Shown here piece after piece: positions 28,401 through 62,000 of a stretch of 64,000 bases of DNA. Below the pieces are notes generated by a model. That model was not told the origin of the DNA. It saw only the letters and a program-made list of their open reading frames with translations, and searched no databases. This stretch comes from Malus domestica (Eukaryota > Streptophyta > Magnoliopsida > Rosales > Rosaceae). The position numbers were made by a program, and so were the translations under genes. The stretch covers positions 377,001 to 441,000 of the forward strand of contig NC_091662.1 in assembly GCF_042453785.1 (NCBI RefSeq), written 5' to 3'. Numbering within the stretch: position 1 is the first letter of the stretch; every line of letters starts with the position of its first letter.

Positions 28401-30120
28401 TCGTAACAAGTTGTTCACATCTAACAGCAGGATCTCCTGTCTAAAACTATGGGAAAGTGTGATGATTAGCATCTGCTTGAGTAATGAATAATGAGTTCTA
28501 TACTGTTTTGTACTCTTTGTAGGGCAGGTCCAAGGTCATAGTTATGGATGTTGATGGCACTCTTTCCAAAGGTATTGAAAGATCCTTGAGAAAGCTTGGG
28601 CTCAAGGCAAGTACATAATGCAAGATAAAGATTCATATTTTAATTAATAAAAATCATTAGCACTTTTCTTATGGATACTGGTATGTATCTTAAGAAAACA
28701 GCTCAATGCATCATAAATTTTTGGTATTTCTGGAATTGCTGAGCAATTTCGTAGATACTAATACCTAGAGATGTTTAAATGACAGAAACCGTACTTGGTT
28801 CAAGGTGGCTTTCAATCTTGGGTGAAATATGGTCTCCGTATTAAGGAACTCAAACCTGAGACAACATTTACCATACTCAATGAGGTATTTATCTCTTTGA
28901 AGCTGGTTATTCTTGTAAGTTACTATAAATACAGAGATGATAATATATGCTGGTTGGTGAATTTCTACGAATGGCATCTGATTCCCTTGATAATAACCGA
29001 TGTGATTACTTTCTTTTCAAAACGTTGTTGGATTGCAGTGGCTGAGGTTCTCTTGTATATGTAACGTGGAGTTGGGGACCCATTTTTTTTAGCTTTGTTG
29101 AAAAAGAGGTGAACGAGATAAATATGTTTGACAACCAGAGCAATAATCATGACTGCATTCAACACAGAGATTATTGCTGTTTTCCCCCTTTCTGCCGCAT
29201 TTTTACAGAATTGTAAGACCAGATTTGAGCTTTTCACTTATGCACAATTGCAAAAAATTGTATCATTTTAGGATGCTGAGGCAATTCTGGAGGATATCAG
29301 TCCTTCTCCGGTGCAAGTTCTTGGGTCTGGTGTGGTAAGACAAATTGTCTTCATTAGTTTCTACTTTATATTGATCCGTCTTTTGTTATTACGAAAACTT
29401 GATTTTGTTTTGTGTGTTGTAGAAATGTTTAGTTGCCATGCAATTTCAAGTGCATCATTCGCTAACTTACGCAACTACCTTCTGTGCAGGGATTGATTGC
29501 AGCATTGTATGCACTACTAGGTGTGTATATGTGCCTTAAATTTCTCTCTAAAAAGAAATTGGATTACCTAATTGTTTTCCACTCAAGTCTGTACAGTTCT
29601 AATTTCACCATATATACAGTTAAATTTTGCTAGTGAATTGTGCCGGATTTCTTCATCTCTAATCAGCATGATTCATTGGATACGGAGTGGGAGAAGACGT
29701 TACAACTGATTGGTGTTGTTGGCGTTGGTCAGGTATTATAATCTTCCTAGAATGAGTGCTGTACTTTTTTCTTCTTCCCCTTTCTCATTGCTCTTTTCTT
29801 CAATTCCACCAGACCATTTATCGGTGGGTGGCATCTTATGACACCGCAGAAGATTTTAAACAAGACGTGAGGTAAAGCTAACTACATTAGGCCCAGTAGA
29901 TTGTGTCTTTCACCGTGCTGTTGGAGTCAAACAACCAAACACCACATTATTTAGATTGTGCTGATTCGATGTCGTTTTATTGTCGTCTCTATGTTATGTT
30001 CCATGAAGGCTGCTGCTTGCTCCTGTTAGACTGGGCGCTCAGGCATTTTCATGGACTGCTGGAAAATTGGAATCGAACGGCATTGGACTGCCAACATCTC
30101 CTTCATCCTCAGATGTTTAA
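25437..30120 (+). CDS. Plastid rhodanese-like domain protein (At3g59780-like)
   Basis: Thirteen exons: 25437-25490, 26021-26977, 27333-27433, 27528-27642, 27772-27849, 27993-28085, 28523-28606, 28786-28884, 29272-29334, 29490-29522, 29667-29732, 29813-29871 and 30009-30120, giving 637 residues. The N-terminus looks like a transit peptide. A long Ser/Thr-rich region is followed by a membrane segment (about 359-375, FVLFLGTSAILWVIYRVWI). Then comes a rhodanese fold (LIDVRPE, GIPDLRRAARF, PYLVQGGFQSW). The usual active-site Cys loop reads VMDVDGTLSKG, so no catalytic cysteine is seen, as in the thylakoid proteins CAS and TROL. Two introns start with GC. The donor of exon 10 is ambiguous (29520 or 29522); 29522 keeps the frame. 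A TAA at 30118-30120 ends the frame 41 codons before a second stop. Confidence 0.85.
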
Positions 30121-30243
30121 AACCGAGTATTGCAGGCTGCTGCAAAGCATCAATCTCAACCGTCTGATACGGAAGGCATCCAAGATCCATCTCCTGACTC
30201 AACACTTACAATCAAGGAGAATGTCGATCTATCAGAAGCATAA
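30121..30243 (+). other. In-frame tail downstream of the early stop of the rhodanese-like gene
   Basis: After the TAA at 30118-30120 the same frame stays open to a TAA at 30241-30243. It reads like protein (NRVLQAAAKHQSQPSD, then PSPDSTLTIKENVDLSEA). The stop sits where a CAA (Gln) would continue the sequence. It probably was the last part of the coding region and now acts as 3' UTR. Confidence 0.6.
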
Positions 30244-30759
30244 AGGTTGATATTTTCTTGCAGTAGGCATCTCCTGACTCGTGTTCTAGCTCGAAAGTTG
30301 ATCTGAGCTGTATTAGCAAATCAAGGAAGGTTAATGAAGCTAAATAAGTGATAATTCTGTAACAATGTGCACTCAAGTTGGCTCTCTCAAGTTTCCTCCT
30401 TATACAAGCCAACTCTCCACCCCTTATTTTAATATACAAACAACGTGATTTTAAGCTCAATTAGCCATCGATGTCGTCATCATCACATTTACGTGAGTTG
30501 AATGTGAGAGCTACTCCAATTAGACAGAGCCGAACATGAGCCGAACATGAGCCGAACGTGACACCTCTTCCAGTGACGAGATGAATATATCTACCAATGG
30601 ACTTCCAACGTCAATTGATAGCTGATAATTGACACATATTTCCCCCAAAATTTAAAAGATTTTAGCTTAAGAGATTTTGCTTGGGGACAAAAAACACATA
30701 AACAGAAAGGTCTCTCCTTTTTTGTTCGAAACGGAAAGCTTTCTGGAGATGACGTATCC
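30244..30759. other. Intergenic, 3' flank of the rhodanese-like gene
   Basis: Probable 3' UTR and spacer. It includes a short tandem GAGCCGAACATGA (three copies, about 30526-30562). No gene is seen. Confidence 0.4.
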
Positions 30760-31720
30760 TACTGTGTGAGAAATTTATATTTCTTATCAGAGATGCTGCA
30801 GGGTCATTTATCGGGTGTGACATACAGTGATTATGCTGGAGATTTATCTCCTCAGTCGACATTGGAGCTCTTGACAAGGAAGGAGAATGCTGTGTCATTG
30901 ATGTCCGACCTGAGGCAATATATATATTGCTTACTTTTTGGCCAGACCCTTATATTTGGCCAAAAAGGGAGACCCGAAGCCAACAGAGCTCCCCGCTTTG
31001 GTGGCGCTGATAATTTATCAAAATTTTGCCTAAGTGGGGCTGAAAAGACCAAGAATCCTTTTAATTGCCTAAAGTAAAACATAGTATGAGAGAGGAAATT
31101 CTAAGGATAAAAATCATTCAATTTCAAGTCTTTCACATCTAATTAACAGCAGGATCTTATGCCTAAAACTATGGGAAAGTACGTTGGTTAGCATATATGC
31201 CGTGAGTAATGAATAATGAGTTCTATATATTGTTTTGTACTGTGTGTAGGACAGGTCCAAGGTCATAGTTATGGATGCTGACGGCATTCGTTCCTAAGGT
31301 ATCGCTAGATCCTTGAGAAAGCTTGTTGTGTATAATACATCTTTTAATTAATAAATTCATTAGGACTTTTCTTAGTTGAGACCACTCATTTGACATTCCT
31401 CAGGAATAAAGAGAAGAGTGGATAGAGTGAGAAATTGGCTAGTTATGGATGCTGATGGCACTCGTTCCAAAGGTATCATCGCAAGATTCTTAAGAAAGCT
31501 TGGGGCTCAAGGCAAGTACATAATGCAAGATAAAGGTTCATATTTTAAATAAAAAAAAACATTAGGACATTTCTTATGGAAACTGGTATGTATCTTAAGA
31601 AAACCACTTAGTTCATCATAATTTTTTGGTTGGTATTTCGGGAATTGCTGAGCAACATCGTGGATGCTAACACCTTGAGATGTTTAAATGACAGAAACCG
31701 TACTTGGTTGTTATATGTAC
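30760..31720 (+). pseudogene. Truncated duplicate of the rhodanese-like gene (exons 4, 7, 7', 8)
   Basis: The part 30766-30935 repeats the end of intron 3 and exon 4 of the gene at 27490-27650, with small changes and lost bases. Copies of exon 7 occur twice, at about 31249-31325 and 31440-31520 (TCATAGTTATGGATGCTGA). The intron 7/exon 8 junction (GATGTTTAAATGACAGAAAC) follows near 31678-31710. The exons in between are missing and the frame is broken. It is a partial tandem duplicate of a host gene, about 3 kb downstream of its source, with no intact product. Confidence 0.85.
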
Positions 31721-35715: not shown

Positions 35716-36112
35716 CACTTACTATTTTTGGCTTTTTAGCCAAAAATAGTGATTGAAATTTGCATAACTTCTCATTTTGTTCCCTAAGATTTGAAATCAA
35801 TAGAATTGGTTCATGAGTTTGTCCACAATTAATCATTTTAATCATTCCATGAAAAAAAATCCATAAAATAAGGATACAATGACAAAAATACCCTTAATTT
35901 TTTTCAAATCATTTTGGCCCATTGTTTATTATATTGAGGGTAATTTTGTCATTTTGATCTTTATTTAACATAATTTTTCATTCAATGACCAATATGATTG
36001 ATGGTGGATAATCTCATAAACCACTTGTATTGATTTCAAATCTCAGGGACCAAAATGATTAGTTATACAAATCTCAGGGATCATTTTGGCTAAAAAGCCC
36101 ACTATTTTTTAG
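35716..36112. mobile_element. MITE with inverted arms
   Basis: The left arm (ATAACTTCTCATTTTGTTCC, then GATTTGAAATCAATAGAATT) pairs with the right arm at about 36000-36075 (TTGATTTCAAATCTCAGGGA, then ATGATTAGTTATAC). Outer ends share CTTTTTAGCCAAAA. It is about 0.4 kb with no coding capacity. Its GATTTGAAATCAAT arm resembles other Rosaceae foldback MITEs. Confidence 0.7.
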
Positions 36113-42610: not shown

Positions 42611-45261
42611 AACGGCTAAAACATCAATTTCTCAACATTGACAAAGACATCAATAGAACAAGCTGGAATTTAAGGAAACTAGAAGCATAACCATAAATAA
42701 AACGAAATGAGTAGCAAAAAAATTCTCATATTCAAAACAATAAGAAAGAAAACTAGTAGGAAGTGGAATAAACCATGAAAAGCAGCATGAAATGTTCATA
42801 TAAATGGACATTAATAAATAAAATTAGAAGAATATAGCAAACAATCCGTATTACCTCCTACGCTTGAAGAAGCTCAAGCTAACATTAAACTTCACGAACA
42901 TGACAAACACCATAATCAACAAGTCGGGAAAAACTGAACTCAATTTGGCTTCCAACATCATTTTCTTCTCCAGGAGTTGTTCTTTCATGTGTCGTGCAAA
43001 ATTTATTTTATTATTACTAATTTTATAACAGTAAGTTTTGTATGACATTCATGTAGAGATCAATAAAATAAATTAAGTAAAGGTTGCACATATACACGTA
43101 GGGTTCTGATTTTTGTTCTCATAAAAGTGCATGACTATCGCCCTTGAGAAATTAAGCGCTCCAACCATATTATTTCTAAAGGAACCTTGGATCACTTTAA
43201 AATGTCATATGTATAGATAAACTTGATTGAGGCCACCTAGTTTTAAGGGCTGTTTCTATTCTCTAAGATTTCTAATTGAATTAAGGCCTGACATGATTTC
43301 AGCGGGAAGGTAAAACCTCTCGCAGCTAGACTGGAGAAGTGGATGATACCACAAGTCCATGGTATCACGCCTATTAACAACTAAATGGATAATATGAAGT
43401 TGAATTGATGGAAATTTTTATTTTTTTTATTAAATAGAAATAATTTCACTTAAGCACAAAGTTAAAACCAGTGAACAATAAGTCCACTAGAAGACATACA
43501 CATAAAATAGAATTAACAGAGCCCTACAGTAGCCCCATTGGCATTAACACTTGAAGTCATAACCTCATGCAACCAAAGTGATATTAGGCGGTTCATGACC
43601 AAAATCCTAAGCAACATCGCACCGGTTGTATTAATAAAGAAAAAGATAACATGAAGTTTATTAGATAGTGGTTTTTCATTCTTTATTGAAAAGAATAATT
43701 TTACCACCTTACAAGAAAGTTGAAGGAGAGAGGATCGGAGGCGTAGGTAGTGTCGGAAATAAAGATATCGAGGTTTTTGTAGAAGTCTCTCAGCTGGGGT
43801 CATCTAACACGCCTTTTATTGGGTAACATATAGAGGGTGTGTAGTAGTAAATGATTTCGGCGGCGGCTTGATAAGCAATGAGCCATTTATAACCTTAACT
43901 GTATCATCATTTAGCAGACTGCGCTTGATTTTGGGTCGATTGAAGGTTGAACCCAAAATCAAGCGCAGTTTGTTAAATGATAATACATTTAAGATTATAA
44001 ATGACTAATTGCTTATGGAGCCGCATTCGAAATCATCTACTGCTACACTCCCTCTGTTACACAATTGTAGGTGTGTGTGAAAGGTATACTTGGGGACGAT
44101 GATGGATGACCCGAGTTGATAGACTTATACAAAAACCCCGATATCTTTATTTCTAATGCTATCTCCTTCCCCAGTTCTCTCTCCTTCAACTTTCTTGTCA
44201 GGTAGTAAAATTGTTTCATTTTAATAAAGAATGAAAAATTTACTATCTATTAAACTTTATGTTATTTTTTTCTTTGTTAATACTATTGGTGCGATGTTGA
44301 TTTAAGATTTTTGTCATGAACCGCCTAATATCAATTTGCATGTATTATAGGTTATGACTTCAAGCATTAATGTCAATGGGGCCACCGTAGGGTTTTTTTA
44401 ATTATATTTTATGTGTCTTCTGGTGTACTTATTGTTCACTTGTTTTAACTCTGTGCTTCAGTGAAATTATTTTTATTTAATAAAGAAAAAATCTCTATCG
44501 ATTCAACTTTATATTATCTATTTCGTTGTTAATAGGTGTGATATCATTGACTTGTGGTATTATTCACTTCTCCAGTCTAGTTGCAAGAGGTTTTATTTCC
44601 CCGCTGAAATTCTATCATGCCTTAATTTAATTAGAAATCTTAGAGAATAGAAACAGCCATTGAGATAGAATGGCCTCTATCAAGTCGATAAAATCATCTA
44701 TAGGTGAGATTTTGAAGTGATCCAAGGTTCCTTTATGGTGGGAGCGCTTAATTTCTTAAGGATGGTAGTCATGCACTTTTATAAGAATCAGAACCCTACT
44801 TGTGGTATGTGCAACCCTTTCTTAATTTATTTTATTGATCTCTACATTAATGTTATACAAAACTTACTGTAATAAATTTTGCACGACCCTTTTAACATAA
44901 AAAAACAACTCCTGGAGAAGAAAATGAAGTTGGAAGCTAAATTGAGTTCAGTTTTTTCCCGACTTGTTGATTATGGTGTTTGGCATGTTCGTGAGGTTTA
45001 ATGTTAGCTTGAGCTTCCTCAAGCGTAGGAGGTAATATGGGTTGTTTGCTATATTCTTCTAAATTTATTTTTTAATGTCATTTATATAAACATTTCATCG
45101 TTTATTCCACTTCCTCCTAGGTTTTTTTCTTATTGCACATTTGAATTTTATGCCACTCATTTCTTTTTGTTTATGCTTCTAGTTCCTTTTGTTTTCCTTA
45201 AATTCCCAGCTTGTTCTATTGATGTCTTTGTCAATATTGAGAAATTTATGTCTTAGCTGTT
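42611..45261. mobile_element. Large palindrome (foldback-type), 1.3-kb arms
   Basis: The left arm (42611-43936) is the reverse complement of the right arm (43951-45261), with a 14-base spacer. Matching pairs include TTGATTTTGGGT/ACCCAAAATCAA at the centre, CTCCTACGCTTGA near 42856 with its complement near 45020, and CTTGTTCTATTGATGTCTTT near 45210 with its complement near 42645. Arms differ by many substitutions and small indels, so they have been separate for some time. No transposase frame is seen. Long arms with almost no loop fit a foldback element, a long-TIR element that lost its middle, or an inverted duplication. Confidence 0.85.
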
Positions 45262-45299: not shown

Positions 45300-46450
45300 G
45301 TGCAAGAAGGCTGAAGGGGTAATAAAAATTACCAATTCTAATCCCCAGAACATGGAGGTTGTTGTTAGGAAGAGGATTGCAAGCATGTAACTCTCTCTAT
45401 GTGCATAATTTTTCAGCTTGACTGTTACTTACGGTTATATATTGATGATAAGTTAGTCCGACAAAGAGAAGAATCATTTTCTAGCATTTGACTTGATGGA
45501 AGGAATAAATGTTCATGCTATTGAAGCGAAAATTGCGAAGTACCAGGAAGAAAATGCTGAACAAATAATGATTAACAAAGCTCGTAAGATAGTTCAAAAT
45601 AAGATCGCCGTGTTTTTTACCCTTAGTACCTGCTGATTTTGTTTAATGGGAAAAGATGATCCTAATGCCGGCAAAGTGGCAATATTTGAACTCTTAAATG
45701 TTTTTTGCTTAGTTTATGACATGGTTCTAATGCTGATTTTGTATAATGGGAAAAGAGGATCCTAATGCCGGCAATATTTGAACTCTTTAATTGTTTTTAG
45801 CTTTGTTTATGACATGGTTCTAATGCTGGTGTTTTCAATCGAATAGGCTGGAGAGCTTGCTGCAGCTCTAGCAGCAAGCAAGGGACATCCTCTACAGAAT
45901 GAAACTGATGCGGTAAGAGTGGTTTAGGGATTGTTACTTGTATGCATTCTCTTATGTTTTCTTTAGATGACCTTGCACATTTTAAATGTTGAAACAATTC
46001 AAAGAGATTTTGTTAACTGATCTGATGGGTTTATTGATAGGGTGTGAGTCAAGGCTCTCAAGCAGGATTTGGTGCTGGCAGACAAGGGGCAGTATGCTCC
46101 CTACAGTTTCAGGGCAACTAAAGACCAACTGGCGGCATGGGTCCACAACCACCACCACTTGGAGGAGGGGGGCATGATATGCACGGATACACTTTTGACG
46201 ATATAGAAATGATGAAGGTGCGAGCAGAGAGAGGTGGTAGGGCAGGAGGGTGGAGCGGAGAGATGAGCAGGAAGAGGGCGGTAGGGCAGGGGGGTGGAGT
46301 GGAGAGATAAGCAGGAAGAGGGCACTTGAAGAAGCCTATAGTAGCGTTTGGATTTGTTAGCTCTGTAATTGTAAGAGCAGAAACATGCCTTTTTTTTCAT
46401 GGAAACAAAATTGTACAATCATCATTAGTTATTACTTATACAATGATCAT
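45300..46450 (+). pseudogene. MAT1 (CDK-activating-kinase assembly factor) pseudogene
   Basis: Exon-like pieces in order: KITNSNPQNMEVVVRKRIAS (about 45330-45390), NKREESF then FDLMEGINVHAIEAKIAKYQ and EENAEQIMINKARK (about 45460-45590), AGELAAALAASKGHPLQNET (45846-45905), GVSQGSQAGFGAGRQG (from 46040), GGGGHDMHGYTFDDIEMMKV (46160-46220), and the tail SRKRALEEA. This is the plant MAT1 plan (At4g30820 type), a subunit that links CDKD and cyclin H. The N-terminal RING part is absent, the FPSLREYNDYLEEVEDMT region is missing, stops occur between pieces, and a stretch of about 45 bases is duplicated at 46228-46315. It lies directly right of a large palindrome. No product is expected. Confidence 0.8.
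46228..46316 (+). repeat. Tandem duplication of about 45 bases in the MAT1 pseudogene
   Basis: GGTAGGGCAGGAGGGTGGAG ... GATGAGCAGGAAGAGGGC is followed by a second copy with a few changes. It shifts the frame before the final ALEEA part. Confidence 0.75.
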
Positions 46451-46663
46451 TGTTTAGGACTCTTCTTATGGAAATTGGTATGTCTCAACGAGGTATTGAA
46501 AAGATGTTTCGTTTTATTTTTTGCTTTTTATAAAAAAGGGATAACTGGTGATAAATTATTGTTATTCATCTCTTTCGGGCCCGGAATTGGCTAGTTGGGA
46601 ATTCGCCACTCCTTTAGGGCCAAGAGGAGGCTAGTTGGGAATTGTATCATCCTCGTGGCCACA

Positions 46664-47126
46664 ATCAAGCTTAAAGAATGCTGGATTAGAGCCTGATGAA
46701 ACAACTTACTGTTCAATGATTGAAGGTTGGGGTCGAGCTGACAATTATAAGAAAGCAGAACGGTACTATAAAGAGCTCAAGCGGTTGGGGTACAAACCTA
46801 ATTCGTCTAACCTGTACACTCTAATAAACTTGCAAGCCAAGCATGATCATGAAGAGGGGGCCATCAGGACTCTTGACGATATGCTGACAATGGGGTGCCA
46901 ATATTCCTCGATTCTTGATACTATTCTGCAAGCATATGAGAAGGCAGGAAGGATTGATAAAGTGCCTCGCCTTTTGAGAGGTTCTTTCTATCAACACTTT
47001 CTTGTCAGCCAGACTTCTTGTTCCATTCTTGTCATGGCTTATGTAAAACACTGCTTGGTCGATGATACTATGAAAGTGCTGAGGACAAAACTGTGGAAGG
47101 ACCCTCCTTTTGAAGATAAATTATAA
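46664..47126 (+). pseudogene. PPR gene (At4g30825-like) fragment A
   Basis: The open frame from 46635 contains clear PPR units: AGLEPDETTYCSMIEGWGRA, YKELKRLGYKPNSSNLYTLI, GAIRTLDDMLTMGCQYSSIL. It corresponds to the middle of the chloroplast PPR protein At4g30825 (BFA2 from memory). The 5' half of the gene is absent, and the match stops at 47125 in FEDKL where unrelated DNA begins. It follows the MAT1 pseudogene, as At4g30825 follows At4g30820 in Arabidopsis. A truncated frame of this kind is not expected to work. Confidence 0.85.
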
Positions 47127-48039
47127 TGGCATGTTAAAGGTAATTTGGGGTGTATTTTAATTTTTTTAAAAAAAGCTTCTGAAGTCGAAATTGTCTTTGC
47201 ATGTTAAAGGTGGTTGCTGCCTTGCTGGGAGATTTATCCAATCTTAGAAAGAATTACTTCGGTTTGTCGAATTCCAGGAAATAAAATACGCCTAACTTCT
47301 AGTGTACTGTTATCTATATAATTAAAAAGAAGCCCGCGCTTCAATGCCAGTATTGAAACTATAACCACAATTTAACACACATATCTCTAAACAATTCAGA
47401 AATCGTTTAAAGCAGCTAAAGCCACATGGTATAAATAAGGTTTTCAATTTGCATTTGTATTCTATTAATTTACATTAAATACTTATGTACAACTAAAATG
47501 ATAGATTTGTATGTACCAATCACAAAGAGAAAATAAATTGTTCCCCTTCATCAGTTTGCACCCAAATGATAACAGAGAAGTTAACGTTGTAAGTAAATGG
47601 ACAGGTGTTGCGTTTTTAAAGAAACCACAGAGAGGCCAGGGCTTTTATTAGGTACAGAAGATTTGCAGAATTATTGTGTCATGCAGAAGATTTCAGTCCT
47701 TGCATAATTATGTGTTCCCAACCAACCATCCTTGCAGAATTATATGTTCCCAACCAACCGTCCTTGCATAATTATGTGTTCCCAACCAACCGTCCTTGCA
47801 GAATTATATGTTCCCAACCAACCGTCCTTGCAGAATTATATGTTCCCAACCAACCGTTGGATCAACTCCCCTTAAACTGATAACTTGTGCCTTGGCAAGA
47901 AAATAAAACTTGTGCAAATTCTTAGTCTTCCCTCTTCTCTCCCCTCTGTCCTCACCTTTCCTTCTGTGCATTTTCATCCTTCCAGGGCTCCTTGCTTTTC
48001 TACGTGACACTCTTTTGCTATCCATTTTATTTTCTGGGT
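47127..48039. other. Spacer between PPR fragment A and the large palindrome
   Basis: This contains GCATGTTAAAGGT twice (47131 and 47201), a possible Helitron-like start at 47313 (TCTATATAATTAAAAAGAAG), and the 32-bp tandem array listed next. No gene is seen. Confidence 0.4.
47698..47862 (+). repeat. 32-bp tandem repeat, five copies
   Basis: The unit CCTTGCAGAATTATATGTTC + CCAACCAACCGT repeats five times. Copies alternate between CATAATTATGTG and CAGAATTATATG variants, which suggests growth by doubled units. Confidence 0.85.
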
Positions 48040-48890
48040 TTTCCCTTTTTTTTATATTATTTTCTCCTTATTGGTTTCTTTGTAGTTGATATGCTCATTT
48101 TGTTTTTTGGGTTTTTTCCCCCAGTTTTACGTAGTTCCTGAGCTTTTGCCTTGTTTGAGTGAAGTGGTTTTTTTTCATCATAAAAATAAAAATCTTGCTC
48201 CTTTTGCTCTTTGGTTTTTTTTTTTCTCTCCTTGTTGGTTTCTTGTAGTTGCTGGACTCTCGTCTCATCTGGTTTGAATAAAGTGCTGTCTTGAATATTA
48301 AAAAAAATAATATGTTTTTCCAACTCATTTTGTTTTCTGAGGTTTTTTCCAATCTACTTTACGTTATTTTTCTACTTGTTGATTTGTTTGTAGTTGTTGT
48401 GCTCATTTTGTTTTGTGGGCTTTTTTTTTTCTTTCGTTTTGATGTAATTTTCCTCCTGGTTGAAGTTGCTGGACTTTCCCTTGTTTGAGTGAAGTGTTTT
48501 TTTTTAATAATAATAAAAAAATATTTTTCCTGCTCATTTTTCTGGGTTTTTTTTTCAAATTTATTTTCCCTATTTTCCTCCTTTTTGGTTTCTTTATAGT
48601 TGCTGGCCTTTTCCATTGTTTGAGTGAAGTATTTTTTTGAATGATAAAAAAAAAGATGTTTTTCCTGCCCATTTTGTTTTGTGGGGTTTTTTTTTTCCAA
48701 TTTTTTTAAAATTATTTTTCTACTTGTTGTTTTCTTTGTAGTTGTTGTGCTCATTTTGTTTTCTGTGTTTTTATTTTCCGTTTTTTCAATATTATTTTCC
48801 TCATTGTTGGTTTCTTATAGTTGTTGCGTTTTGCATTGTTTGAATGAAGTGTTTCTTTGAATAATAAATAAAAAATATTTTTGTGTAATT
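48040..48890. repeat. T-rich tandem array in the left outer arm
   Basis: Units of roughly 180 bases repeat the order TGCTCATTTTGTTTTCTGGG, a T-run, TTTCCTCCTTGTTGGTTTCT, GTAGTTGCTGGACTTTGCC, TTGTTTGAGTGAAGTG, and an A/T run. About four to five copies are present, with their complement at 52340-53380. Lys-rich open frames on the minus strand here come only from this composition. Confidence 0.7.
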
Positions 48891-48898
48891 TATTTTGC

Positions 48899-49053
48899 AG
48901 GTAGAGAATGAGCAATATTCAATTTGGGAATTTGGGATTATTGATGACGCTGACCTTAAGCCAATCCTAGATTCGAAGTTGTGGGGTGACTGGAGCAATA
49001 TAAAGATATGGAATAAGGCTCTTCTCCACGAGCTTAAAATTTTTATCAGGTAA
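48899..49053 (+). other. Exon-like block in the left arm (unknown protein)
   Basis: After TTTTGCAG an open stretch reads IIDDADLKPILDSKLWGDWS, then NIKIWNKALLHELK, and ends at CAG/GTAATA, so it has splice-like ends. The mirrored copy at 52163-52322 (minus) reads IIDAADLKPTLDSKLWGDWS with KALLHSELKNVIR. Both keep the same protein-like reading apart from an 8-base length difference near the start. The family is not recognised. It may be a host exon captured by the element. Confidence 0.4.
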
Positions 49054-49547
49054 TAAGGGTGTTCTTCATACCTTAAAAATTTTGTGCCTTTTTAAAATTT
49101 AATTAAGTTGATTTGACAAGTAACTACTTTAGCATTTTTTTGTTTACTTAAATTACATGTCATTATTAAAATACTAAGAGAGCTTTTTTTTTTCACTATG
49201 AATATGATGATATATTTGCATATTTTATTCTCATTTTAAATTTTGAAATAAGCTTGGTTCATCTCCTCTTTGTTCATGTTTCATTATTTTTGACTTTTTT
49301 TTTTACGGAGGCTGGTACAAGTTAGTTAGGTTGGTTGGTAACAATTAATTATTTTTTAGGGATTCATAATGTACCATCATATTAGTATGTATTAAAATAA
49401 ACATTTCATAGCGTACCAACATATTGATACATATCAAAATAGACATTTCATAGCATACCAACATATTGGTATGTACTAAAATAAGGTACATCGAAATTCA
49501 GATACTTATTGTTCATCAATCCTTCCATATTTATTCCCTGGTAATTA

Positions 49548-49680
49548 GTACTAGGGTCTAATGGTATTTCTCTTCACTTGTAAGTTAGAGGTCTTAGGTT
49601 CGATTCTTCTCAAGGCAAATTTGAAGCTAAGTCCACCATATTCCTTTTAGTATAGATAACGGTGTTTGTTCAAAAAAAAA
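49548..49680 (+). repeat. SINE in the left palindrome arm
   Basis: Box A-like GTCTAATGGTATTTC, box B GGTTCGATTC (49597-49606), and an A-run at 49670-49680. A diverged mirror copy lies in the right arm. Confidence 0.6.
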
Positions 49681-50031
49681 AAGTGGGGTAATTCAAATTG
49701 TATATATTATTTTTCAGATCAATTATCGTTCTGATTATAAAATCAAAGAAAAAAGGACAGATGCATGGTTGATTAAAAAAATGATAATATCAGACTTGAT
49801 GACAATTCAATTGGATTAATCAAATTCCATTGAACAATCTGAGGGTTGAGTTCAAGCTGTTGGTAGACCGACCGATTTCAGTCAAAGTCGGAGATGATGT
49901 TAACTTGGTTGAGTTAACTCAGTTCCTTCACCTCATCAGTCTTCATCTGCCACTGTAAGAAATATATATTGCTTTATATTTAAGTCAAATTACGTTTTTT
50001 AAGGTTAAATTTAATTTTAATACTTAGTTAT

Positions 50032-50235
50032 TTGTTAATTAGGGAATATTTTGCCTCTCTCTTTTACCACTCAATTATGTTATCGATGGAGGAGAGATTT
50101 CATGGTCCATTTTATGTGGTCATGGATTCACGTCTCATGGCTATCTATAATTTTTTGGAGAAAAATATATCAAACTGTGCTAGGAGAAAAAGTGTATTGA
50201 TATCAAGGAATATGTCGAAAACAATGGAACGATAA
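50032..50235 (+). other. Protein-like block in the left arm (unknown)
   Basis: A 67-codon frame with ERFHGPFYVVMDSRLMAIYN and FLEKNIS. The mirror copy (about 51030-51240) keeps much of this wording. Family not recognised. A second block, VEFKLLVDRP and VKVGDDVNLVELTQFLHLIS, lies at about 49845-49960. Confidence 0.3.
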
Positions 50236-50411
50236 AGAGCATACTTAAGTATAGTGTAGAAAAGGGTGATCATTATGACAATGAAACATAAACATATTTC
50301 AGAATCAGTTCTATTACACAAATAAATTTAAACTAAAGATTCAACTATTTCACTTTACAACATATAAAAGCTTATCGTGTGTCATAGAACATCGGGATAA
50401 ATTCTCTAGCC

Positions 50412-50633
50412 TTAGCCTGTGCGTCTTCCTCGGAACGGAACCTCAAATTCTGCGGTCACATTGGTAGCACAGTTTTCGCCGATATGGTCGAAAGCAATTT
50501 GGTATTCCACCTTCTGCCCTTGGACGAGTTGTGGTTCATAGCCTTCCTCAGTCACTACATACTTCTTCTTCACTTTTATTAATGAGCCATCTGGTTGGCT
50601 TATAATTCCACAACTATGGACTACATCCAACAA
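50412..50633 (-). other. Protein-like block near the palindrome centre, cold-shock-like
   Basis: The minus-strand frame of 73 codons has CGIISQPDGSLIKV, EEGYEPQLVQGQKVEYQIAF and ATNVTAEFEV. The order G-x-I-x-x-PDGS, then GY-x-x-L-x-x-GQKVEY, then ATNVTA is like a cold-shock/OB-fold domain, but the RNA-binding aromatic motifs are not clear. A degraded mirror copy is at about 50650-50830 (+). It may be a captured host exon. Confidence 0.35.
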
Positions 50634-51542
50634 TCTTTCAAAACGTTACCAGACGGTTCATTAATAAAAGTGAAGAAGAAGGATGTAGTGACTGAGGAAG
50701 GTTATGAACCGCAACTCGCCCAAGAGTAGAAGGTGGAATACCAAATTGCTTTCAACCACACTGGCGAAAAGTGTGCTACCAATGTGACCGCATAATTTGA
50801 GGTTCTGCTCCAAGGAAGATGCATAGGCTAATGTTAGAGAATTTATCCCAATGTTCTACAACACACAATGAACTTTTATATGTTGTAAAGTGAAATAATT
50901 GAATCTTTAGTTTAAATTTATTTGTGTAATGGAACTGATTCTAAATATATTTACGTTTCATTGTCATAATGATCACCATTTTCTACACTGTACTTAAGTA
51001 TCCTCTTATCGTTCCATTGTTTTCGACACACTCCTTGATGTCAATACACTTTTCTCCTAGCACATATTGATATATTTTTCTCCAAAAAATTATAGCTAGC
51101 CATGAGACGTGAATCCGTGACTGCATAAAATGGACCATGAAATCTCTCCTCCACCGATAACAGAATCGGGTGGTAAAAGAGAGGCAAAATATTCCCTAAT
51201 TAACAAATAATTAAGTATTAAAATTAAATTTAACCTAAAAAAATGTAATTTGACTTAAATATAAAGCAATATAAATTTCTTATAGTGGCAGATGAAGGCT
51301 GATGAGGTGACTCAACCAAGTTAACATCATCTCCGACTTTGACTGAAATCAGTCGGTCTACCAACAGCTTGAACTCAACCCTCAGATTGTTCAATTGGTT
51401 GTGATGTGAGGTAGGGAATTTGATTAATCCAATTGAATTGCCATCAAGTCTGATATTATCATTTTCTAATCAACCATGCATATGTCATTTTTTCTCTGAT
51501 TTTATAATCAGAACGATATCTGAAAAATAATAAATACAATTT

Positions 51543-51690
51543 TAATTACCCCACATTTTATTTTGAACAAACGATATTATCTACACTAAAGAGGAAGGTG
51601 GACTTACCTTCATATCTGTCTTTGGTGAAAATCGAACCTAAGACCTATCATTTACAAGTGAAGAGGAATATCATTAGACCATAGTAATAA
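51543..51690 (-). repeat. SINE in the right palindrome arm (mirror copy)
   Basis: The reverse complement reads GGTCTAATGATATTCCTCTT and AGGTCTTAGGTTCGATTTTC, matching the left-arm SINE with many changes. It indicates that the SINE was present before the arms became separate copies. Confidence 0.6.
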
Positions 51691-53599
51691 GTGTCAATTA
51701 TCCCAAAGAATAAATATGGAAGGATAGATGAACAATAAGTATTTGAATTTTAATGTACCTTATTTTAGTACATACCAATATGTTGGTATGCTATGAAATG
51801 TCTATTTTGATACGTATCAATATGTTTGTACGCTATGAAATGTTTATTTTAATACGTACTAATATGATGGTACGTTATGAATCCCTAAAAAATAATTAAT
51901 TGTTACCAACTAACTTGTACCAGCCTCTCTAAAAAAGAAGTCGAAAATAATGAAACATGAACAAAGAAGAGGTGAACTAAGCTTATTTCAAAATTTAAAA
52001 TGAGAATAAAAATATGCAAATCTATCATCATATTCATAGTGAAAAAAAGCTCTCTTAATATTTTAATAATGACATGTAATTTAAGTAAACAGAAAAATGC
52101 TAAAGTGGTTCAAAGCAACTTAATTAAATCTTAAAAAGGCACAAAATTTTTAAGGTATGAAGAACACCTTATTACCTGATAACATTTTTAAGCTCAGAGT
52201 GGAGAAGAGCCTTATCCCATATCTTTATATTGCTCCAGTCACCCCACAACTTCGAATCTAGGGTTGGCTTAAGGTCAGCAGCATCAATAATCCCAAATTG
52301 AATATTGCTCACTCTTTGCCTGCAGAATAAATTACACAAAAATATTTTTTATTTATTATTCAAAGAAACACTTATTCAAACAACAAAACGCAACAACTAT
52401 AAGAAACCAACAATGAGGAAAATAATTTTGGAAAAAAAAGGAAAATAAAAACACAGAAAACAAAATGACCACAACAATTACAAAGAAAACAACAAGTAGA
52501 AAAATAATTTTAAAAAAAATTGGCAAAAAACCCCAAAATAGAAAATGGGTAGGAAAAACATTTTGTTTTTTATTATTAAAAAAAAACACTTCACTCACAC
52601 AACGGAAAAGCCCATCAACTATAAAGAAACCAACAAAGAGGAAAATAGCCAAAAATATTTGAAAAAAAACCCAGAAAAAAATGAGCAGGAATTTTTTTAT
52701 ATTATTATTAAAAAAAAACACTTCACCTAAACTCAAACAAGGAAGAGTCCAGCAACTTCAAGAAACCAACCAGGAGGAAAATTACATCAAAACTGAAGAA
52801 GAAGAAAAGCTCAGAAAACAAAATGAGCACAACAGCTACAAACAAATCAACAAGTAGAAAAATAATGTAAAAAAGATTGGAAAAAACCCCAGAAAACAAA
52901 ATAAGCTGGAAAAACATATATATATATTTTTATATTCAAGACAACACTTCATTCAAACAAGACAAGAAGCCACCAACTACAAGAAACCAAAAAGGAGGAA
53001 AATAACTTTGTAAAAACCGAAAAAAAAAAACATAGAAAACAAAATGAGTACAACAACTACAGAGAAATCAACGAGGAGAAAAATAACTTACAAAAAATTG
53101 GAAAAAAAAACCCAAAAAAACAAAATGAGCAGGAAAAACATCTTTTTTTAATATTATTATTAAAAAAAAGGAGGGAAATAAAGTTAAAAATTGAAAAAAA
53201 AAACCAGAAAACAAAATAAGCAGAAAAACAATTTTTTTTTTATGAAAAAAAAAAAAAACACTCATTCAAACAAGGCAAAAACTCAGCAACTACATAAAAA
53301 CTGGGAAAAAAAACCGAGAAAACAAAATAAGTATATCAACTTCAAAGAAACGAGAAAATAACGTTAAAAAAGGGAAACTAAGACGGGAGAATTGCAGGTT
53401 ACAATTGCAGGGCTTGCACCTCTCAAAAGTACGATCGGCCCCTGCACCAGACGGGGGAATTCTGTATTTCTGTTTAGCATATTGTAGGACCTACTATATA
53501 CAGAAAACTAAGATAATTCAGTATCAAGTATATGAGTTCTCTGTCTAACACAGTTGGTGCCAACATTCATGCGGTTCCCAGTTTTGAGCAAGGCTTCAG

Positions 53600-53905
53600 G
53601 AACACTAATTCTAAGTGTTTGCTACTCGAATTTGCCAATGATTGGTTCTGGTATTCATGATCTTGGATGAGCAGCTTGCTTTCGCTATGCAAGTTTGCTT
53701 TACCTGAGGTTGGTTTATTACTAGAATGCTATTTGAAGGTTTGAATAACATTATTGTATTACAAATTTTATGCGGTGAAAGAAGTCATATCCTACTTCTC
53801 TTTGTTGCTAGATGGGCATTTGGGTTATGCTAAAACTATTGTAATGATGTACTACTGGAACTCAGCTCCACATACTTTCTGCAACTTTGTTCTAACCATG
53901 ACATT
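53600..53905 (+). pseudogene. Fragment of the rhodanese-like gene (intron 4 to intron 5)
   Basis: This repeats 27715-27985: TTTGCCAATGATTGGTTCTG, then GAGCAGCTTGCTTTCGCTAT, the exon 5 end CTACCTGAGGTTGG-like, and the intron 5 text ACTTTCTGCAACTTTGTTCT. Part of exon 5 is missing and an extra stretch of about 60 bases is inserted. It lies about 26 kb from the source gene. Confidence 0.75.
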
Positions 53906-53913
53906 CTTGTAAA

Positions 53914-55110
53914 GTGCCTTACCTTTTGAGAGGTTCTTTCTATCAGCACATTCTTGTCAGCCAGACTTCTTGTTCCATTCTTGTCATGGTTTATGTAAAT
54001 ACTGCTTGGTCGACGATACTATCAAAGTGTTGGGGGTAAAACTGTGGAAGGGTCCGCCCTTTGAAGATAACTTGTATTTTAATTTGCTCACGTAAAGAGT
54101 TGGGTCGTCTTGAAGATGCTGTGAAAATATATCATGTGCACAATGATTGACACCTATAGCATCATAGGTCTGTTAATAGAAGCGGAAAAACTTTATTTCA
54201 AGTTAAAATCTTCTGGAATCGTTTGTATGTAAAGCTGCTTCTTTGGAAGATGCTTGCTCTGTTCTAGACGCAATGGAAAAACAGGAGGGAATTGTGTGTT
54301 CCAGACATCTACATGTTCCGTGATATGCTCCGGATTTATCAACGATGTGGCAGGCTTGATAAGTTGAAGGACCTGTTCTATAAACTCTTCAAAAGTGGAG
54401 CGACATGGGATCAGGAAATGTACAACTGTGTCATAAACTGCTCTTCTCCTGCTTTGCCAGTCAATGAGATCTCAGAGACTTCAACGTGGTTTTGTCCCTA
54501 ATAACATAACCTTCAATGTCATGCTCAATGTATACGGGAAAGCAAAGCTTCTGAACAAAGCTAGGGAGTTGTTCAGGATGGCTCAAAAGTGCGTTTGGTT
54601 GACATGATCTCTTACAATTCTATTATAGCTGCTTACGGGCGAAATAAAGATTTCAGAAGTATGACTTCAACATTTGAAGAGATGCAGTTCAAAGGATTTT
54701 CGGTTTCCCTGGAAGCCTACAATACCATGTTGGATGCTTATTGGAAAGAAAGCCAAATGGAAAGTTTTAGAAGTGTTTTGCAGGGAATGAAAAAAAAAAA
54801 AACTCGCTTCTGACCATTACACTTACAACAATACTATGGAGAGCAAGGATGGATTGATGAAGTTGCCAGTGTGACTGAGTTGAAAGAATGCGGACTTGGA
54901 CCTGATCTGTGCAGCCATAACACGTTGATTAAGGCGTATGGAATTGCAGGAATGGTCGAAAATGCTGTCCATCTGGTCAAGGAAATGAGAGAAAATGGTT
55001 TAGAACCTGATAGGATAACCTATATCAATCTTATCGCTGCACTGCGAAGAAACGATGAATATTTGGAGGCTGTAAAATGGTCCCTGTGGATGAAGCAGAT
55101 GGGGTTGTAA
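53914..55110 (+). pseudogene. PPR gene (At4g30825-like) fragment B
   Basis: The first 160 bases repeat the end of fragment A (about 90 percent alike by eye). The sequence then runs on to the gene's 3' end. Readable pieces: MFRDMLRIYQRCGRLDKLKD, WDQEMYNCVINC, VDMISYNSIIAAYGRNKDF, GFSVSLEAYNTMLDAYWKES, CGLGPDLCSHNTLIKAYGIA, LRRNDEYLEAVKWSLWMKQM and the stop at 55110. They are spread over different frames with stops between, so it is a pseudogene. The end matches the At4g30825 C-terminus from memory. The overlap with fragment A shows two copies rather than one gene simply split. Confidence 0.85.
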
Positions 55111-56013: not shown

Positions 56014-59000
56014 TCAGTTGAAAAAGTATGGAGATTCCAGAACCTCTTGCAAGTCGAAGTCACCTCTTTCTGGGAGGGGAGGGAATGTCAACGCTGGATA
56101 TGATGCTTGGAAGCTTTCTAGCAACTGGGAACAGGCAGAGTTATTATGAAGTCAATGGAAATAAACATGCAATTTAATTCAGGATGGGCTGCTGAGAGGA
56201 AAGTTTCTACTTACATTTTCAAGTATCGGCATGCTATAGAGCTCTATAAACTTTTCCCGAAGTATCTCGTTCATTTGGTCTACGTCACATGCATGAGTCC
56301 AGAAGGAGTCATGTACCCCTACAAACATTTTTTTAACATGCATGTGAGAACTTAAACATATTTCAACATGTGAGTGAGAAGTAAACCAGTAGAGTTAAAG
56401 ACCAGACTACTGAGACAAACCTGCAAAACGCAGGCCCGCGTCCCTGCAGGCAAGTGCAGTCATCATCATGTGTGAACCGTCAAGTGAGTGAACAAAATTT
56501 GGAGGAAATGCAGTCCTTTGTTTTCTAACATCTATCTGTAATAGACAAATGTTAACTCTGCAACAATTCATATAACATTTAAGGAAAGAGAACATTGAGT
56601 AAGCAGCGCTTACCAAGTTACTCTCCCGCTGCAAGGCTAAAACCTGAAGGGATGTTCTTATCTGCAACTCCAAGGAGGGATTAGTTACTAAATTGTCACT
56701 ACAAAATTAATAAATTAAAACTTTAGCCCCATCAGTAGCAACATGGAAAGAAGAAACGATGCATGAATGCAATAGTAGATGCAATCATGCAACATATCCT
56801 GACATTCTGTACTAAACAATTTCATCTGAAATGGAATTTTTCCAGATAATGGTTTGCGGTGTTTGCCTGTTGATGTAAATTTAATATTTAACTAAGCTGC
56901 CAAACTTACAAGATGTCGTTCATTTTTACAGTAGGGTTGCACAACAGGAAGACCTAGAGGAGTAGTCCAACGCACAGGTTGATTTTCTGAAGCAATCACC
57001 TGCAAAAGTTTGATGACTCAACTTATCTACCAGGCCTATCATTTAGCGTCCAGAACATGACCCAAGAAAAAAAGTAACCGCACCTTGGCACAATCACCGA
57101 GCCAGCCCATTATACCACGTGCAGCTTGGAATATCTCACCAAGGGCAGCCAAAGTAACCTGTGGAAAATATGAAAAATTAGAAGGTATGATCTAGATACA
57201 AAAGTTAATGTTTTTCTTTATAAGAAAGCAGCTTATGTTTTTCTTTAGAACCTAAACTGGCCAAGGAGAATAACATGAGGTAATCATCTTTAAATCTAAC
57301 ATATTAAATCGGCAAACCATGCATTGCATTTGCATGTTAATTATCAATTAATTATCCAAATGAGGAAATCAAAGAAACGTCTATACGGTTAAATCTTGAT
57401 CCACAAATATTTGGTCGCAGGTACACTAAGGTGGCTATTTGCTTACTTTAGCAGCATAGCAAGCTGCAGTGAAAAGTAGTCTATCGTCTGTAATAAGACC
57501 CTTCTCCTCTAATCTTCTTTTTATTTGTTCGCGTGCCCCAACGTAAGTAACTCCATACACTGAAGTCATGACAGTCTGTTTCACCAATTTCCGGTCAATC
57601 TGAAAGATTCCAAAACCATAGATTGTTAATTTCATAAATATGCAATTATGCATACAGACTTTTATAATCTATAAGCACTATATACATTCTCGCATGCAGA
57701 ATTACATAACTAAAGAAATCCACATTTAATAAGTAGAAAAACTCATTTAGACAGCATATTGCAACTTTGAACTCCAGAGGAAGCAAGGAAGATCAACCTG
57801 ATTAACTAAGACTCGGGCTAATAAAGCATTTGGGCTTGTAGTCGGATCCTTATTGCTGTCTCTTTCCATAATCTCATGTACCCTGACAACATATAGATAT
57901 AGAAGATAAGTGTTAGTCATGTTACCTCTTCATCTAATATTTTTTCACCTCGTGGCACTATTCTCTCGTATTTTTATGCTTGTCGCACATCTAAAAGGAA
58001 GAAAAACCTAATGAGTAAAATGTGGAAATTTAATATACCTTGCAGCAATTTCTGAGTAAACATCGGCAGGTTTCTCTCCAGCTACTAAGTTGACTGCAGC
58101 TGCTTCCAACTGAGAATATCACAGCAATTCAAATCAACAACAAAGCAAAACTTTTACATAAAATAAAAGTAAGAAAATAAGTTCCTATATTATATTATAT
58201 ATAACAGAACACTGAATGTTTCGACCCCAGAACAAATAGTAAATGAGGAAAACTTAAGAAAATCTGCATGTAAAAAGCCCTTTACAATCAAATTTTCTAG
58301 ATAATGACGTCTATAGTTCATTTACTACAAAAGTAGAATAAATAAGCAGAACAAATAATGGAGTACAAGAAAATTAGAGTGCAGTAACATGAAGATGTAA
58401 ACAGAAAACTTATATCAATGAGGATAAAGCCAACTTACACTATCTCTTCCCAAGGCTGCATAGTGCTGTAAGCCATTGCATGAACCATCCTAGAAAATTG
58501 AAAGCTCATCAATGAAATATAAATGGAAAAATTAAAAATAAATTATCATTTGACCCACACAAATAGGTTAAAAAATTCTTATCATTTGCATAAACTTTTG
58601 AAAATATATGGTTTTGAGTATTAGATAATCCTAAACAAACTTGCATAAACTACGGTATATCTTTTTGCCACTCTAACGACTAAGAAAGCAATTTACCTGG
58701 TGGATGGGCAAATGAGAAATGACAGTATGTGGTGATGGGCTATTTAACGCTTCTGACAGATTGATACAAGCCGCTAGGCACTGTAAAGGATCTTCAGCTG
58801 TTAACCACCATCGGTTTCCATTTACAGGGTTTGTTGCTGAATCAAATATATCATCAATGTGATGATCCACAAATGCATGCCGTTCCTCATACGAAAGCTT
58901 TTCAACACCGCCCGCATAAAGGTTTGCTAAATGAATCTTCAGCCAACGTAAACCAGACTTCCCTAATGGTCGTCCTTCAGCAAATTCAAGGACTCCTCGA

Positions 59001-62000
59001 CAGAGATCAGAACTCAAATGATTTAAATGTGGATGCATTGGGTATGCTCGGCCTCGAAAATCAAGATTGTGAGGATAATAAAAGCCTTCCTCATCCTTCA
59101 TCTTGCGAGCAACCTATTTCAGAATCAGTTCACTCAATATTATTTCTCACAAAGTGAAATCTAAAGGTGGTGACCATATAAAATTGCAAAATAACACAAT
59201 AAAATATCATAAACATTTTATCAATAAATAAAATACTATCTAATCAGATGGGGACCTTACAGAGAGCTTAAGTTCTGTGTCACATCGCAGAGAATGCCTT
59301 TCTTGGTTAATCTTCTTTGCTTTTCTTACACTCCATTTCCATTCCTGAATTTCTGTTAAACCCTCAAGCGGTGGTTTATCTGGCACTGGAACCTACAATC
59401 CCATAAGGATATTTAAGCCAGATGAAATTTAAAAGCAAAATCCAAACAAAATGATGTCAACAAACCCAAAATATGTTGCTGTAACGAAAATCCACCAACA
59501 AAACCAGTAAACTCTACTGACAAGGGAAGTAACTACATTATTCTAACTCTAGTTTCTTTCTTTTTCTTGGATCATTGTAGCTCGAGGCAGATATATCAGG
59601 ACTAATTTGTTATTTGACAGAAAGTTATACATCATCCAATTAAGTTACGCTAAAATTTTCACAAAAGAGAAACAAGAGCTATCCCACATTGGGGTCCTGG
59701 CACCGTATAGGTGCTCATACTTTATACTAATGCTATGGCCGTTAGATTCATAGGTTTATCTCTGGACAATATAGTAACACAAAGGTAGAATAAAAGGTAG
59801 AATACAAACAAGTTCTTAATAAATTCAAGAGATCATTATGTGCTCACATCTTCACGATCAACCAGGCCTGCAATGTTGCCACCTCTAGCCCAGATGCTCT
59901 CCACCACGTTAAGTACTTTTTTATTCACCCTCCATTTGGTACTTCCAAGCATATCTAGGGCCTGCACATGCCATCAAAAGTGAATATCATTTTCACATGT
60001 GTAAGAGAAAGTACATGTTAAAGAACTAGAATAGATCATTGTTTGCCTCTATGCACAGGGAAAGTTCAGTTCATGATCTATTGTTCCATCACAGATAACT
60101 ACTAATGGTTGCACCCAGTATTCTCGGTCACTAATCCATCAGAAAGGGGCAGTGACAGGAACAATGAGAATGGAACTCTAATTTAGCATCTCACCAAGTC
60201 TTAACTAGATAACTGAGCAAAAGCTCTGGTCTTGACCTATTATACAAGGGAAACATAGAATGGAACTCTAATTTATGTACCTCGAATACTTTCTGCATCT
60301 GCTTTCCAGAAATATTCCTCATTGTATCTACCTGCTTCCTAGATCCATGAGTACGCATGACATAAGAAGGTAGGAACAAGTGACCACCCTTATCATACCT
60401 GCAAAGATTTAGATTTTATGGGCATCTGAGTGCAGGCTTCTGATTTGTTTGACATTTTACTAGCCAAAAGTCAACTTGAATAAGATTTCGATTATTTCTT
60501 AACCGCATTCCTGCTAAAGAAACAAAACGAGAACATGCTAAATGAATTTCATATACTGTATCTCATACCCTTTCCACTTTCTGGGAGGCACCAACATTGG
60601 CACATAAGGAATCAACATATGTTTAGCCTGTAAAGAAACAAAGGCATAAATAGCTGGAGCGCACAGATATGTCCAATGTAAAAATGTAAAGAAACAAGTT
60701 GCAAACTGATTTCAAGTGTACTGAACAAGTAAACAGAAACAAAGGAAATATATCTCAACTTACAGTTTTATCAAGCCCAGTAAGAACTAGGGGATCACAT
60801 TCTATAACTCCATAATTCTTCACAAGTTTCTGCCTATAAGGACCAAAAGAAGTTACATTATAACAAAGGAATAGTGGTAGAGTTTAAGGTATATGAATGG
60901 TTATCCTTTACGAAAATACATAGGTGTCCATATCACCACAAAAGTTCTTCATATTCGGATACTTCAACTAGTTGCAGAGGCAAATACCATGATAAAGTCT
61001 TACCCTGGAGTTTTTGCTGCAGCCTTAAATCTGTGCCTAAAGGCCGGTCTAACATCAGGTGGACCATCAGCCAACTGGTTAAGTGGAGGTTGTACGTAAG
61101 CTGTTTCTGTTAATAATTCTATCAGACGACTTCCCAGCTGCAAAATCACATTGCATAAAAAACCCAAAAATAAAAATGGGCACCCACAATATATTATGTA
61201 ATCTAAAATATAAAAAACGCTTCCTCATACTGAGAAAAAAAAATTCTGAAAGCAACAAACCTTAGCCTGTGTATCACGACCCCAGGGTTTAAATTCTTCT
61301 TTTACCAAGAGTTTTTGCACCTCCCTCAGTCTTTTTCTTTTAATTAAAACATTAACACGTTTCCGCAGTATCTCCTTCTCCTTAATCAGACTGTCTTCAT
61401 CAGCAACGGCAGTCTTCTTTCTCTGGAAATTTTTGGTTTTCTCCAAGAAACTGTGAATCCTAACCTGAATTGTAAGGTAACAATATATGATATTTCAACT
61501 TTAATTCCGTGATATCGTTGACAGTGATTACAAACAAGGAAATTTTGATGAAAAGCTATTGCATGAAATTTGCAAAAGGTTCCCTTTCTCTTAACTGAAG
61601 TTCCTCAATTACAAGTCTTAATAAAACAGCTGAGCAAAGTCATTTTCTTTTCAAAACAAATCAATAAATGAGCTAATCAGTATGCTTAATTCCAAAACTT
61701 GTCCATACATAAACAAGAAATCCCGATTATCATAACAACATTTCATGAGTGTAATATCCTTAAAGTTTAAACCTTTAGCTTTTATAGTGCACATCATCTC
61801 GCATTAACTTAGGGTGCATTTGAAAACCAATACATATCATATCATCATCGAAAATTCGAAACACACACAAAAGATTAGGAATTAGAACTCACCTCCTGCT
61901 CAATGGCCATCCCAATATGAACAGCAGCTTGAACAACCTGCACACACCCATCTTGATTCCCCACCATAACCAAGCCCATCATCTTATGCATAACAATCAG

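What the first reader, a model, noticed from the sequence alone, without database searches (positions are those of the whole stretch)
48040..53380. A 5.3-kb near-perfect palindrome with exon-like cargo
The two arms of 2.6-2.7 kb mirror each other around a loop of about 52 bases and both contain the same blocks: T/A-rich tandem arrays at the outer ends, an exon-like block with splice-like borders, a SINE, and protein-like blocks. Arms have diverged by many substitutions and indels, so it is a real, aged structure and not an assembly fold. No transposase is recognised. If transcribed it would give a very long hairpin RNA, a natural source of small RNAs. I know of no named element with this cargo; novelty is inference.
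Basis: partly seen in the sequence, partly recalled or inferred. Interest (0 to 1): 0.8.

Follow-up and report, generated by a model that had tools for sequence, protein, structure and literature searches.

The report
Aged single-copy palindrome in broken gene
A 5.3-kb inverted repeat sits inside a piece of extra DNA that interrupts one of two duplicate plant genes; it looks like an old scar of DNA repair rather than a mobile element or a gene, and it is of modest interest as a possible source of small RNAs.

Summary
The palindrome is real: 48219-50595 mirrors 53005-50648 at 87.8% around a 52-base spacer, and T/A-rich arrays extend the mirror to 48040-53377. No second copy was found in 651 Mb: arrays, 'exon' and centre match only themselves. 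'Exon' and 'protein' labels are unsupported: no significant Pfam, PDB or other genomic match; frame lengths are near chance. The duplicate segment on C15 gives the empty site: its PPR gene reads straight through, while on C2 the same exon is interrupted by about 6.8 kb (47121-53907), flanked by a direct copy of about 160 bp of that exon. The insert also holds short pieces resembling loci 26 and 69 kb upstream. No transposon that I can recall leaves a 160-bp target duplication; break repair with filler synthesis can. I read it as a repair insertion made after the genome duplication, with an inverted duplication formed in or with it, now decaying with a methylation-like mutation pattern. The divergences do not give one date: exon copies and pieces look older than the arm core. 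Hairpin siRNAs are possible but untested.

The parts
46669..47120 (+). PPR gene exon (truncated copy on C2), left of the insert
   Evidence: 93.8% identical to C15:10955492-10955942; PPR in Pfam, E 1.5e-13, for 46635-47126
46964..47120 (+). left copy of the ~160-bp target duplication
   Evidence: 17 differences in 156 aligned bases to 53908-54071; both correspond to the one stretch C15:10955781-10955945
47121..53907 (.). ~6.8-kb insert absent from the duplicate segment on C15
   Evidence: C15 PPR frame runs through uninterrupted
47205..47571 (.). two adjoining dispersed repeats inside the insert (47205-47323 and about 47311-47571)
   Evidence: many places at 73-91% identity; 40 of 111 candidates scored, so counts are lower bounds
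47696..47857 (+). 32-bp tandem array, 5.1 copies
48013..48880 (+). T-rich diverged tandem array, left; 48013-48039 has no mirror partner at the right end
   Evidence: no other place found in the genome
48040..50595 (+). left arm of the palindrome
48889..49050 (+). open frame called exon-like; no relative found
49251..49484 (+). stretch with 42-bp tandem units, distant relatives on C3 and C10
   Evidence: 76-79% identity to two places 5 kb apart on C3 and two on C10
49545..49625 (+). dispersed short repeat (SINE-like), present in both arms
   Evidence: 90-94% in the three loci compared
50415..50645 (-). open frame called protein-like; no significant relative found
50596..50647 (.). spacer of the palindrome (52 bases)
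50648..53377 (-). right arm of the palindrome, with A-rich array about 52340-53377
53397..53530 (-). fragment A, resembling C2:361175-361307 beside an FH2 (formin) frame, about 69 kb upstream
   Evidence: 77%
53549..53602 (+). fragment B, resembling C2:360935-360988, which lies within an FH2 (formin) frame
   Evidence: 90.7%; FH2 in Pfam, E 3.3e-46, for the source frame C2:360501-361070
53601..53801 (+). fragments C and D, resembling window 27715-27755 and 27790-27941, about 26 kb upstream
   Evidence: 95% and 83%
53908..54071 (+). right copy of the target duplication
42611..45261 (.). second single-copy palindrome nearby, 1.3-kb arms (not part of the insert)

Best explanation
The palindrome is part of a ~6.8-kb filler insertion made when a break in a PPR exon on C2 was repaired after the genome duplication. 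Shown: the empty site on C15, the ~160-bp exon duplication at both borders, pieces resembling nearby C2 loci, and no second copy found. Inferred: staggered ends were filled in, which doubled the exon segment, and the repair polymerase copied from several templates; the inverted arms arose when the growing strand turned back and copied itself, either then or in a later event inside the insert. It has no evident function now: the C2 PPR copy is broken, the arms drift, and they carry the mutation pattern of methylated DNA. If read through by a polymerase it would fold into a hairpin with a stem of about 2.4 kb and could feed siRNA-directed methylation of itself.
For: A PPR frame on C15 runs uninterrupted through the site (PPR in Pfam for 529 aa, E 4.8e-70). 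The same C15 stretch, 10955781-10955945, matches both borders of the insert; of 156 compared sites the two C2 copies share 3 changes against C15, with 5 left-only, 11 right-only and 1 where all differ. Fragments A-D resemble C2 loci 26 and 69 kb away and overlap by 2 bases at two joins. No second copy of the arms, array or frames. Arm core: 34 transversions in 1641 sites (0.021) against 0.032-0.055 in five C2-C15 stretches, in line with an origin after the duplication. C/T change: CG 25 of 100 and CHG 13 of 123 in the arm core against 111 of 742 and 64 of 1509 in four flank stretches (Fisher p 0.014 and 0.006). Tandem duplication through patch repair is described in rice (PMC7971508, passages read).
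Against: The dates do not agree. The exon copies (K2P 0.120, s.e. about 0.025) and the fragments are more diverged than the arm core (0.072, s.e. 0.006), so the palindrome is younger than its surroundings, or its arms were homogenised, or the fragments came from other sources. Arm-core K2P equals the lowest of the five C2-C15 stretches (0.072-0.105); the arm array has 29 transversions in 659 (0.044), inside the C2-C15 range, and the short-repeat region of the arms K2P 0.17 (131 sites). C2 origin of the fragments is only weakly favoured (24 sites shared with the C2 source against 13 with C15). In rice, tandem duplications fall from 70% of insertions to 5% by 200 bp, and the passages describe plain tandem duplications, not copies parted by 6.8 kb of filler. 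No source was found for the arm sequence. Two-base overlaps can be chance, and one of the two is seen only in the C15 match.
Confidence: 0.6

Rival explanations
1. A degenerate, orphaned foldback (long-TIR, Mutator-like) transposon: the arms are terminal inverted repeats with internal subrepeats, moved by a transposase from elsewhere.
For: Long arms with tandem subrepeats towards the outer ends, as in foldback elements (Tm1, passages of PMC3169594). The fragments and exon copies look older than the arm core, as a later insertion into an existing insert would. CG and CHG decay is also usual for silenced transposons (recalled).
Against: No other copy of arms or array units was found. In 100-base windows at both ends no exact 8-mer or longer is shared; the 4 hits reported lie at one place, at best a 10-mer with one mismatch, 28 and over 50 bases outside the ends, about what I would expect by chance (estimate mine). 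The left array runs on past the point mirrored by the right end.
Confidence: 0.2
2. A working hairpin-RNA locus: the arms are transcribed as one long stem-loop and diced to 21-24-nt siRNAs with a regulatory role, like Arabidopsis IR71 and IR2039.
For: Arms of about 2.4 kb at 88% with a 52-base loop. Such loci exist: endoIR-siRNAs come from very long stem-loops (PMC4687873, passages read). CG and CHG decay fits a methylated locus.
Against: No expression data here. The arms drift, with 23 gap events in the core. Most of the arm has no other genomic match, so no target was found apart from the dispersed repeats. CHH change, expected with RNA-directed methylation, is not raised in raw terms (40 of 822 against 237 of 5317, p 0.59).
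Confidence: 0.12
3. Assembly artefact (fold-back of one arm).
For: None beyond palindromes being prone to it.
Against: Arms differ by 12% including many indels; both borders carry separately diverged copies of the exon.
Confidence: 0.02

Closest known systems
Patch-mediated double-strand-break repair insertions / filler DNA in plants (Vaughn and Bennetzen 2014, seen only as a reference; rice follow-up PMC7971508, passages read)
   Same: Insertion with a direct copy of the target and no transposon behind it
   Different: The copies are parted by 6.8 kb of filler, with a long palindrome inside it; the rice passages describe plain tandem duplications
Endogenous inverted-repeat siRNA loci of Arabidopsis (IR71, IR2039; PMC4687873, passages read)
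   Same: Long inverted repeat able to form a very long stem-loop
   Different: No transcript or siRNA shown here; arms 88% alike with many indels
Foldback transposons (FARE and Tnr8 seen in a reference list; SoFT recalled; Tm1 in PMC3169594, passages read)
   Same: Long inverted arms with tandem subrepeats towards the ends
   Different: No family found, no short target duplication, no transposase, ends not equivalent

Membership tests
Break-repair filler insertion | Empty site in a comparable segment | tested here: met
   C15 exon is uninterrupted
Break-repair filler insertion | Direct copy of target sequence at both borders, longer than a transposase leaves | tested here: met
   ~160 bp, 46964-47120 and 53908-54071
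Break-repair filler insertion | Filler copied from identifiable templates | tested here: inconclusive
   53397-53801 resembles C2:361k and window 27.7 kb, but divergence is high; no source found for the arms or for 53802-53907
Break-repair filler insertion | Microhomology at joins | tested here: inconclusive
   2-base overlaps at two joins, one seen only in the C15 match; within chance
Foldback transposon | Long inverted arms with internal subrepeats | tested here: met
Foldback transposon | Short (about 8-11 bp) target-site duplication at the element ends | tested here: not met
   7-14-mers scanned in 100-base windows at both ends; 4 overlapping hits at one place, not at the ends. A decayed duplication with two or more mismatches would be missed
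Foldback transposon | Dispersed family of related copies | tested here: not met
   Array patterns with 2-3 mismatches: 3 hits in each, all inside this palindrome (the reversed control gave 1 hit, 0 in 56); arms match only here. More diverged relatives would be missed
Foldback transposon | Transposase in this or a related copy | tested here: not met
   No significant Pfam match in the 5 palindrome frames scanned; no related copy was found to look in
Endogenous IR-siRNA locus | Long stem-loop in one transcript | tested here: inconclusive
   DNA arms present; transcription unknown
Endogenous IR-siRNA locus | 21-24-nt siRNAs from the arms | not testable with these tools
   no small-RNA data
Gene-fragment capture (Pack-type transposon) | Cargo with a recognisable donor gene | tested here: not met
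   For the palindrome's two frames only self and mirror match in this genome

The most novel reading that the evidence does not exclude
Break repair in a redundant duplicate gene can build multi-kilobase palindromes from copied templates, and such palindromes then become self-methylating hairpin loci. Two of them lie within 11 kb here, which would make this segment a snapshot of how plant hairpin-siRNA loci are born without a transposon or a parent gene.
Probability: 0.2. Interest if true: 0.55.

Novelty: new member of a known kind. Interest (0 to 1): 0.3.

Why it matters
If the repair reading holds, it gives a naturally fixed example in which a long palindrome lies inside a repair insertion, with an intact duplicate gene as control. 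That bears on how endogenous hairpin loci originate in plants. As a feature in itself it is most likely an inert, decaying scar.

Tried and rejected
Transposon family: searched arm blocks, array, inner part and two array-unit patterns over the whole genome; nothing but self and mirror, apart from the dispersed stretches. The patterns hit only 3 units each even inside the array, so strongly diverged relatives are not excluded.

Coding cargo: Pfam, PDB and genome searches gave nothing significant. The longest stop-free run in the arm (83 codons) is reached in 213 of 500 first-order Markov resamplings and the one in the inner block (77) in 289 of 1000. In the 211-base exon block the longest run (70) is reached in only 27 of 1000, but it is the opposite-strand frame, not the 54-codon exon frame.

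RNA families: no match at gathering scores in the window.

'One event, one date' was dropped because exon copies, fragments and arms differ in divergence. The five C2-C15 stretches used as yardstick include coding exons, so they understate neutral distance; 60700-61568 has the most transversions (47 of 862). In the methylation test four of the five were pooled (57702-59143 was left out).

Palindrome frequency was looked at only in 204 kb already held, not a random sample: two palindromes with arms of 1 kb or more, both in this window; a cluster with shorter arms on C15, one on C10 and several small ones.

Literature: 8 searches (the last found 0 papers). No study of a nuclear apple palindrome appears in the 12 and 10 titles listed; those calls matched 494 and 72 papers, so this does not show that none is in print.
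Full report
What is there. The window is C2:377001-441000 of a 651-Mb genome in 19 contigs. No tool names it; apple or a near relative is my inference from size, contig number and the C2/C15 pairing (recalled). The palindrome is confirmed: 48219-50595 mirrors 53005-50648 at 87.8% over 2433 columns, spacer 50596-50647, with the arrays extending the mirror to 48040 and 53377. The left array continues to about 48013 without a partner at the right end.

Copy number. The block 48882-50600 finds itself, its mirror, four distant places for the 42-bp-unit stretch and 35 reported places for the short dispersed repeat (40 of 1427 candidates scored, so counts are lower bounds). The array region, the two open frames and 49780-50660 find only themselves and their mirror. 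Because that search skips simple repeats, I also ran two array-unit patterns with 2 and 3 mismatches: 3 hits each, all inside this palindrome; more diverged relatives would escape these patterns.

Cargo. The exon-like frame (54 aa) and the central frame (77 aa) have no significant Pfam or PDB match; the best are DUF7619 at E 0.2 and a PDB chain at E 0.14, both for the central frame. Stop-free runs of this length are ordinary for the arm and for the centre. Differences between arms in the exon block (9 of 151) are about as frequent as in the whole core (112 of 1641), and one arm has an 8-base gap in it, so no constraint is seen.

Empty site. C15 aligns to the window in blocks in the same order on both sides of the site, with a few out of order. 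C15:10955492-10955942 matches window 46669-47119, and C15:10955781-10956008 matches 53910-54131. One C15 stretch thus matches both borders, and the C15 frame continues through it for 529 aa of PPR repeats. On C2 the left copy runs into a stop at the border, and the right copy has frame-shifting gaps. So about 6.8 kb (47121-53907) was inserted and about 160 bp of exon was doubled.

Inside the insert but outside the palindrome: two dispersed repeats (47205-47571), a 32-bp tandem array (47696-47857), and on the right four short fragments resembling C2:361307-361175 (reverse), C2:360935-360988 (within a formin FH2 frame), window 27715-27755 and window 27790-27941. Neighbouring fragments overlap by 2 bases at two joins, one of them only by the C15 match. 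For 53802-53907 no source was found in the sequence held.

Age. Arm core K2P 0.072, array 0.082; five C2-C15 stretches 0.072-0.105. Transversions: 0.021 in the arm core and 0.044 in the array, against 0.032-0.055. The core thus points to an origin after the C2-C15 duplication, at roughly 0.4-0.65 of its age if rates are equal; the array, of simple composition and hard to align, does not separate. That the insert postdates the duplication rests mainly on the empty site. The exon copies (0.120) and the fragments (41 fragment-only changes; 24 sites shared with the C2 source, 13 with C15) are more diverged than the core. Either the palindrome formed or arrived later inside an existing insert, or the arms exchange sequence, or the fragments came from lost paralogs. 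I cannot separate these.

Methylation footprint. Transitions make up 78 of 112 differences in the arm core against 464 of 864 in the five C2-C15 stretches (Fisher p 0.0016). C/T change is raised in CG (25/100) and CHG (13/123) against 111/742 and 64/1509 in four flank stretches; CHH is not raised in raw terms (40/822 against 237/5317, p 0.59). This fits a silenced, methylated locus, as a transposon or a hairpin locus alike would be.

Verdict. Foldback-transposon membership fails on family, short duplication and transposase, within the sensitivity stated. The exon duplication and the C15 control favour a repair insertion; the closest described kind that I saw is patch repair in rice (PMC7971508, passages). 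It could act like an endogenous hairpin locus (PMC4687873, passages), which is untested. A second single-copy palindrome at 42611-45261 with more diverged arms (K2P 0.119) suggests that this decaying stretch of C2 gathers such structures.

Noticed in passing
window 42611-45261: Second long palindrome, arms about 1.3 kb, spacer at most about 26 bases, K2P 0.119, no other copy found in the genome; C/T changes raised in CHG (10 of 85 against 64 of 1509) and CHH (66 of 653 against 237 of 5317). It ends about 40 bases before a decayed MAT1-like gene copy.
   Followed up: partly
window 35730-36099 and C15:10953681-10954039: Short palindromic repeat (arms about 180 bp) with a relative on C15 in a non-collinear place; perhaps a palindromic MITE.
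   Followed up: no
L034:4541-7437 (C15:10909541-10912437): Cluster of nested, overlapping palindromes with arms up to about 0.7 kb over 2.9 kb.
   Followed up: no
L043 (C3:33148104-33148521 and 33153047-33153459): LTR-like direct repeats (423 columns, 88%) 4.9 kb apart that resemble the 42-bp-unit stretch of the palindrome arms.
   Followed up: partly
window 45304-46360: MAT1-like gene copy (Pfam MAT1, E 4.5e-6) that lacks an exon seen at C15:10952416-10952601.
   Followed up: partly
window 27483-31709: Partial local duplication: 27483-27666 with 30757-30943 and 28422-28800 with 31144-31709, both matching one C15 region.
   Followed up: no
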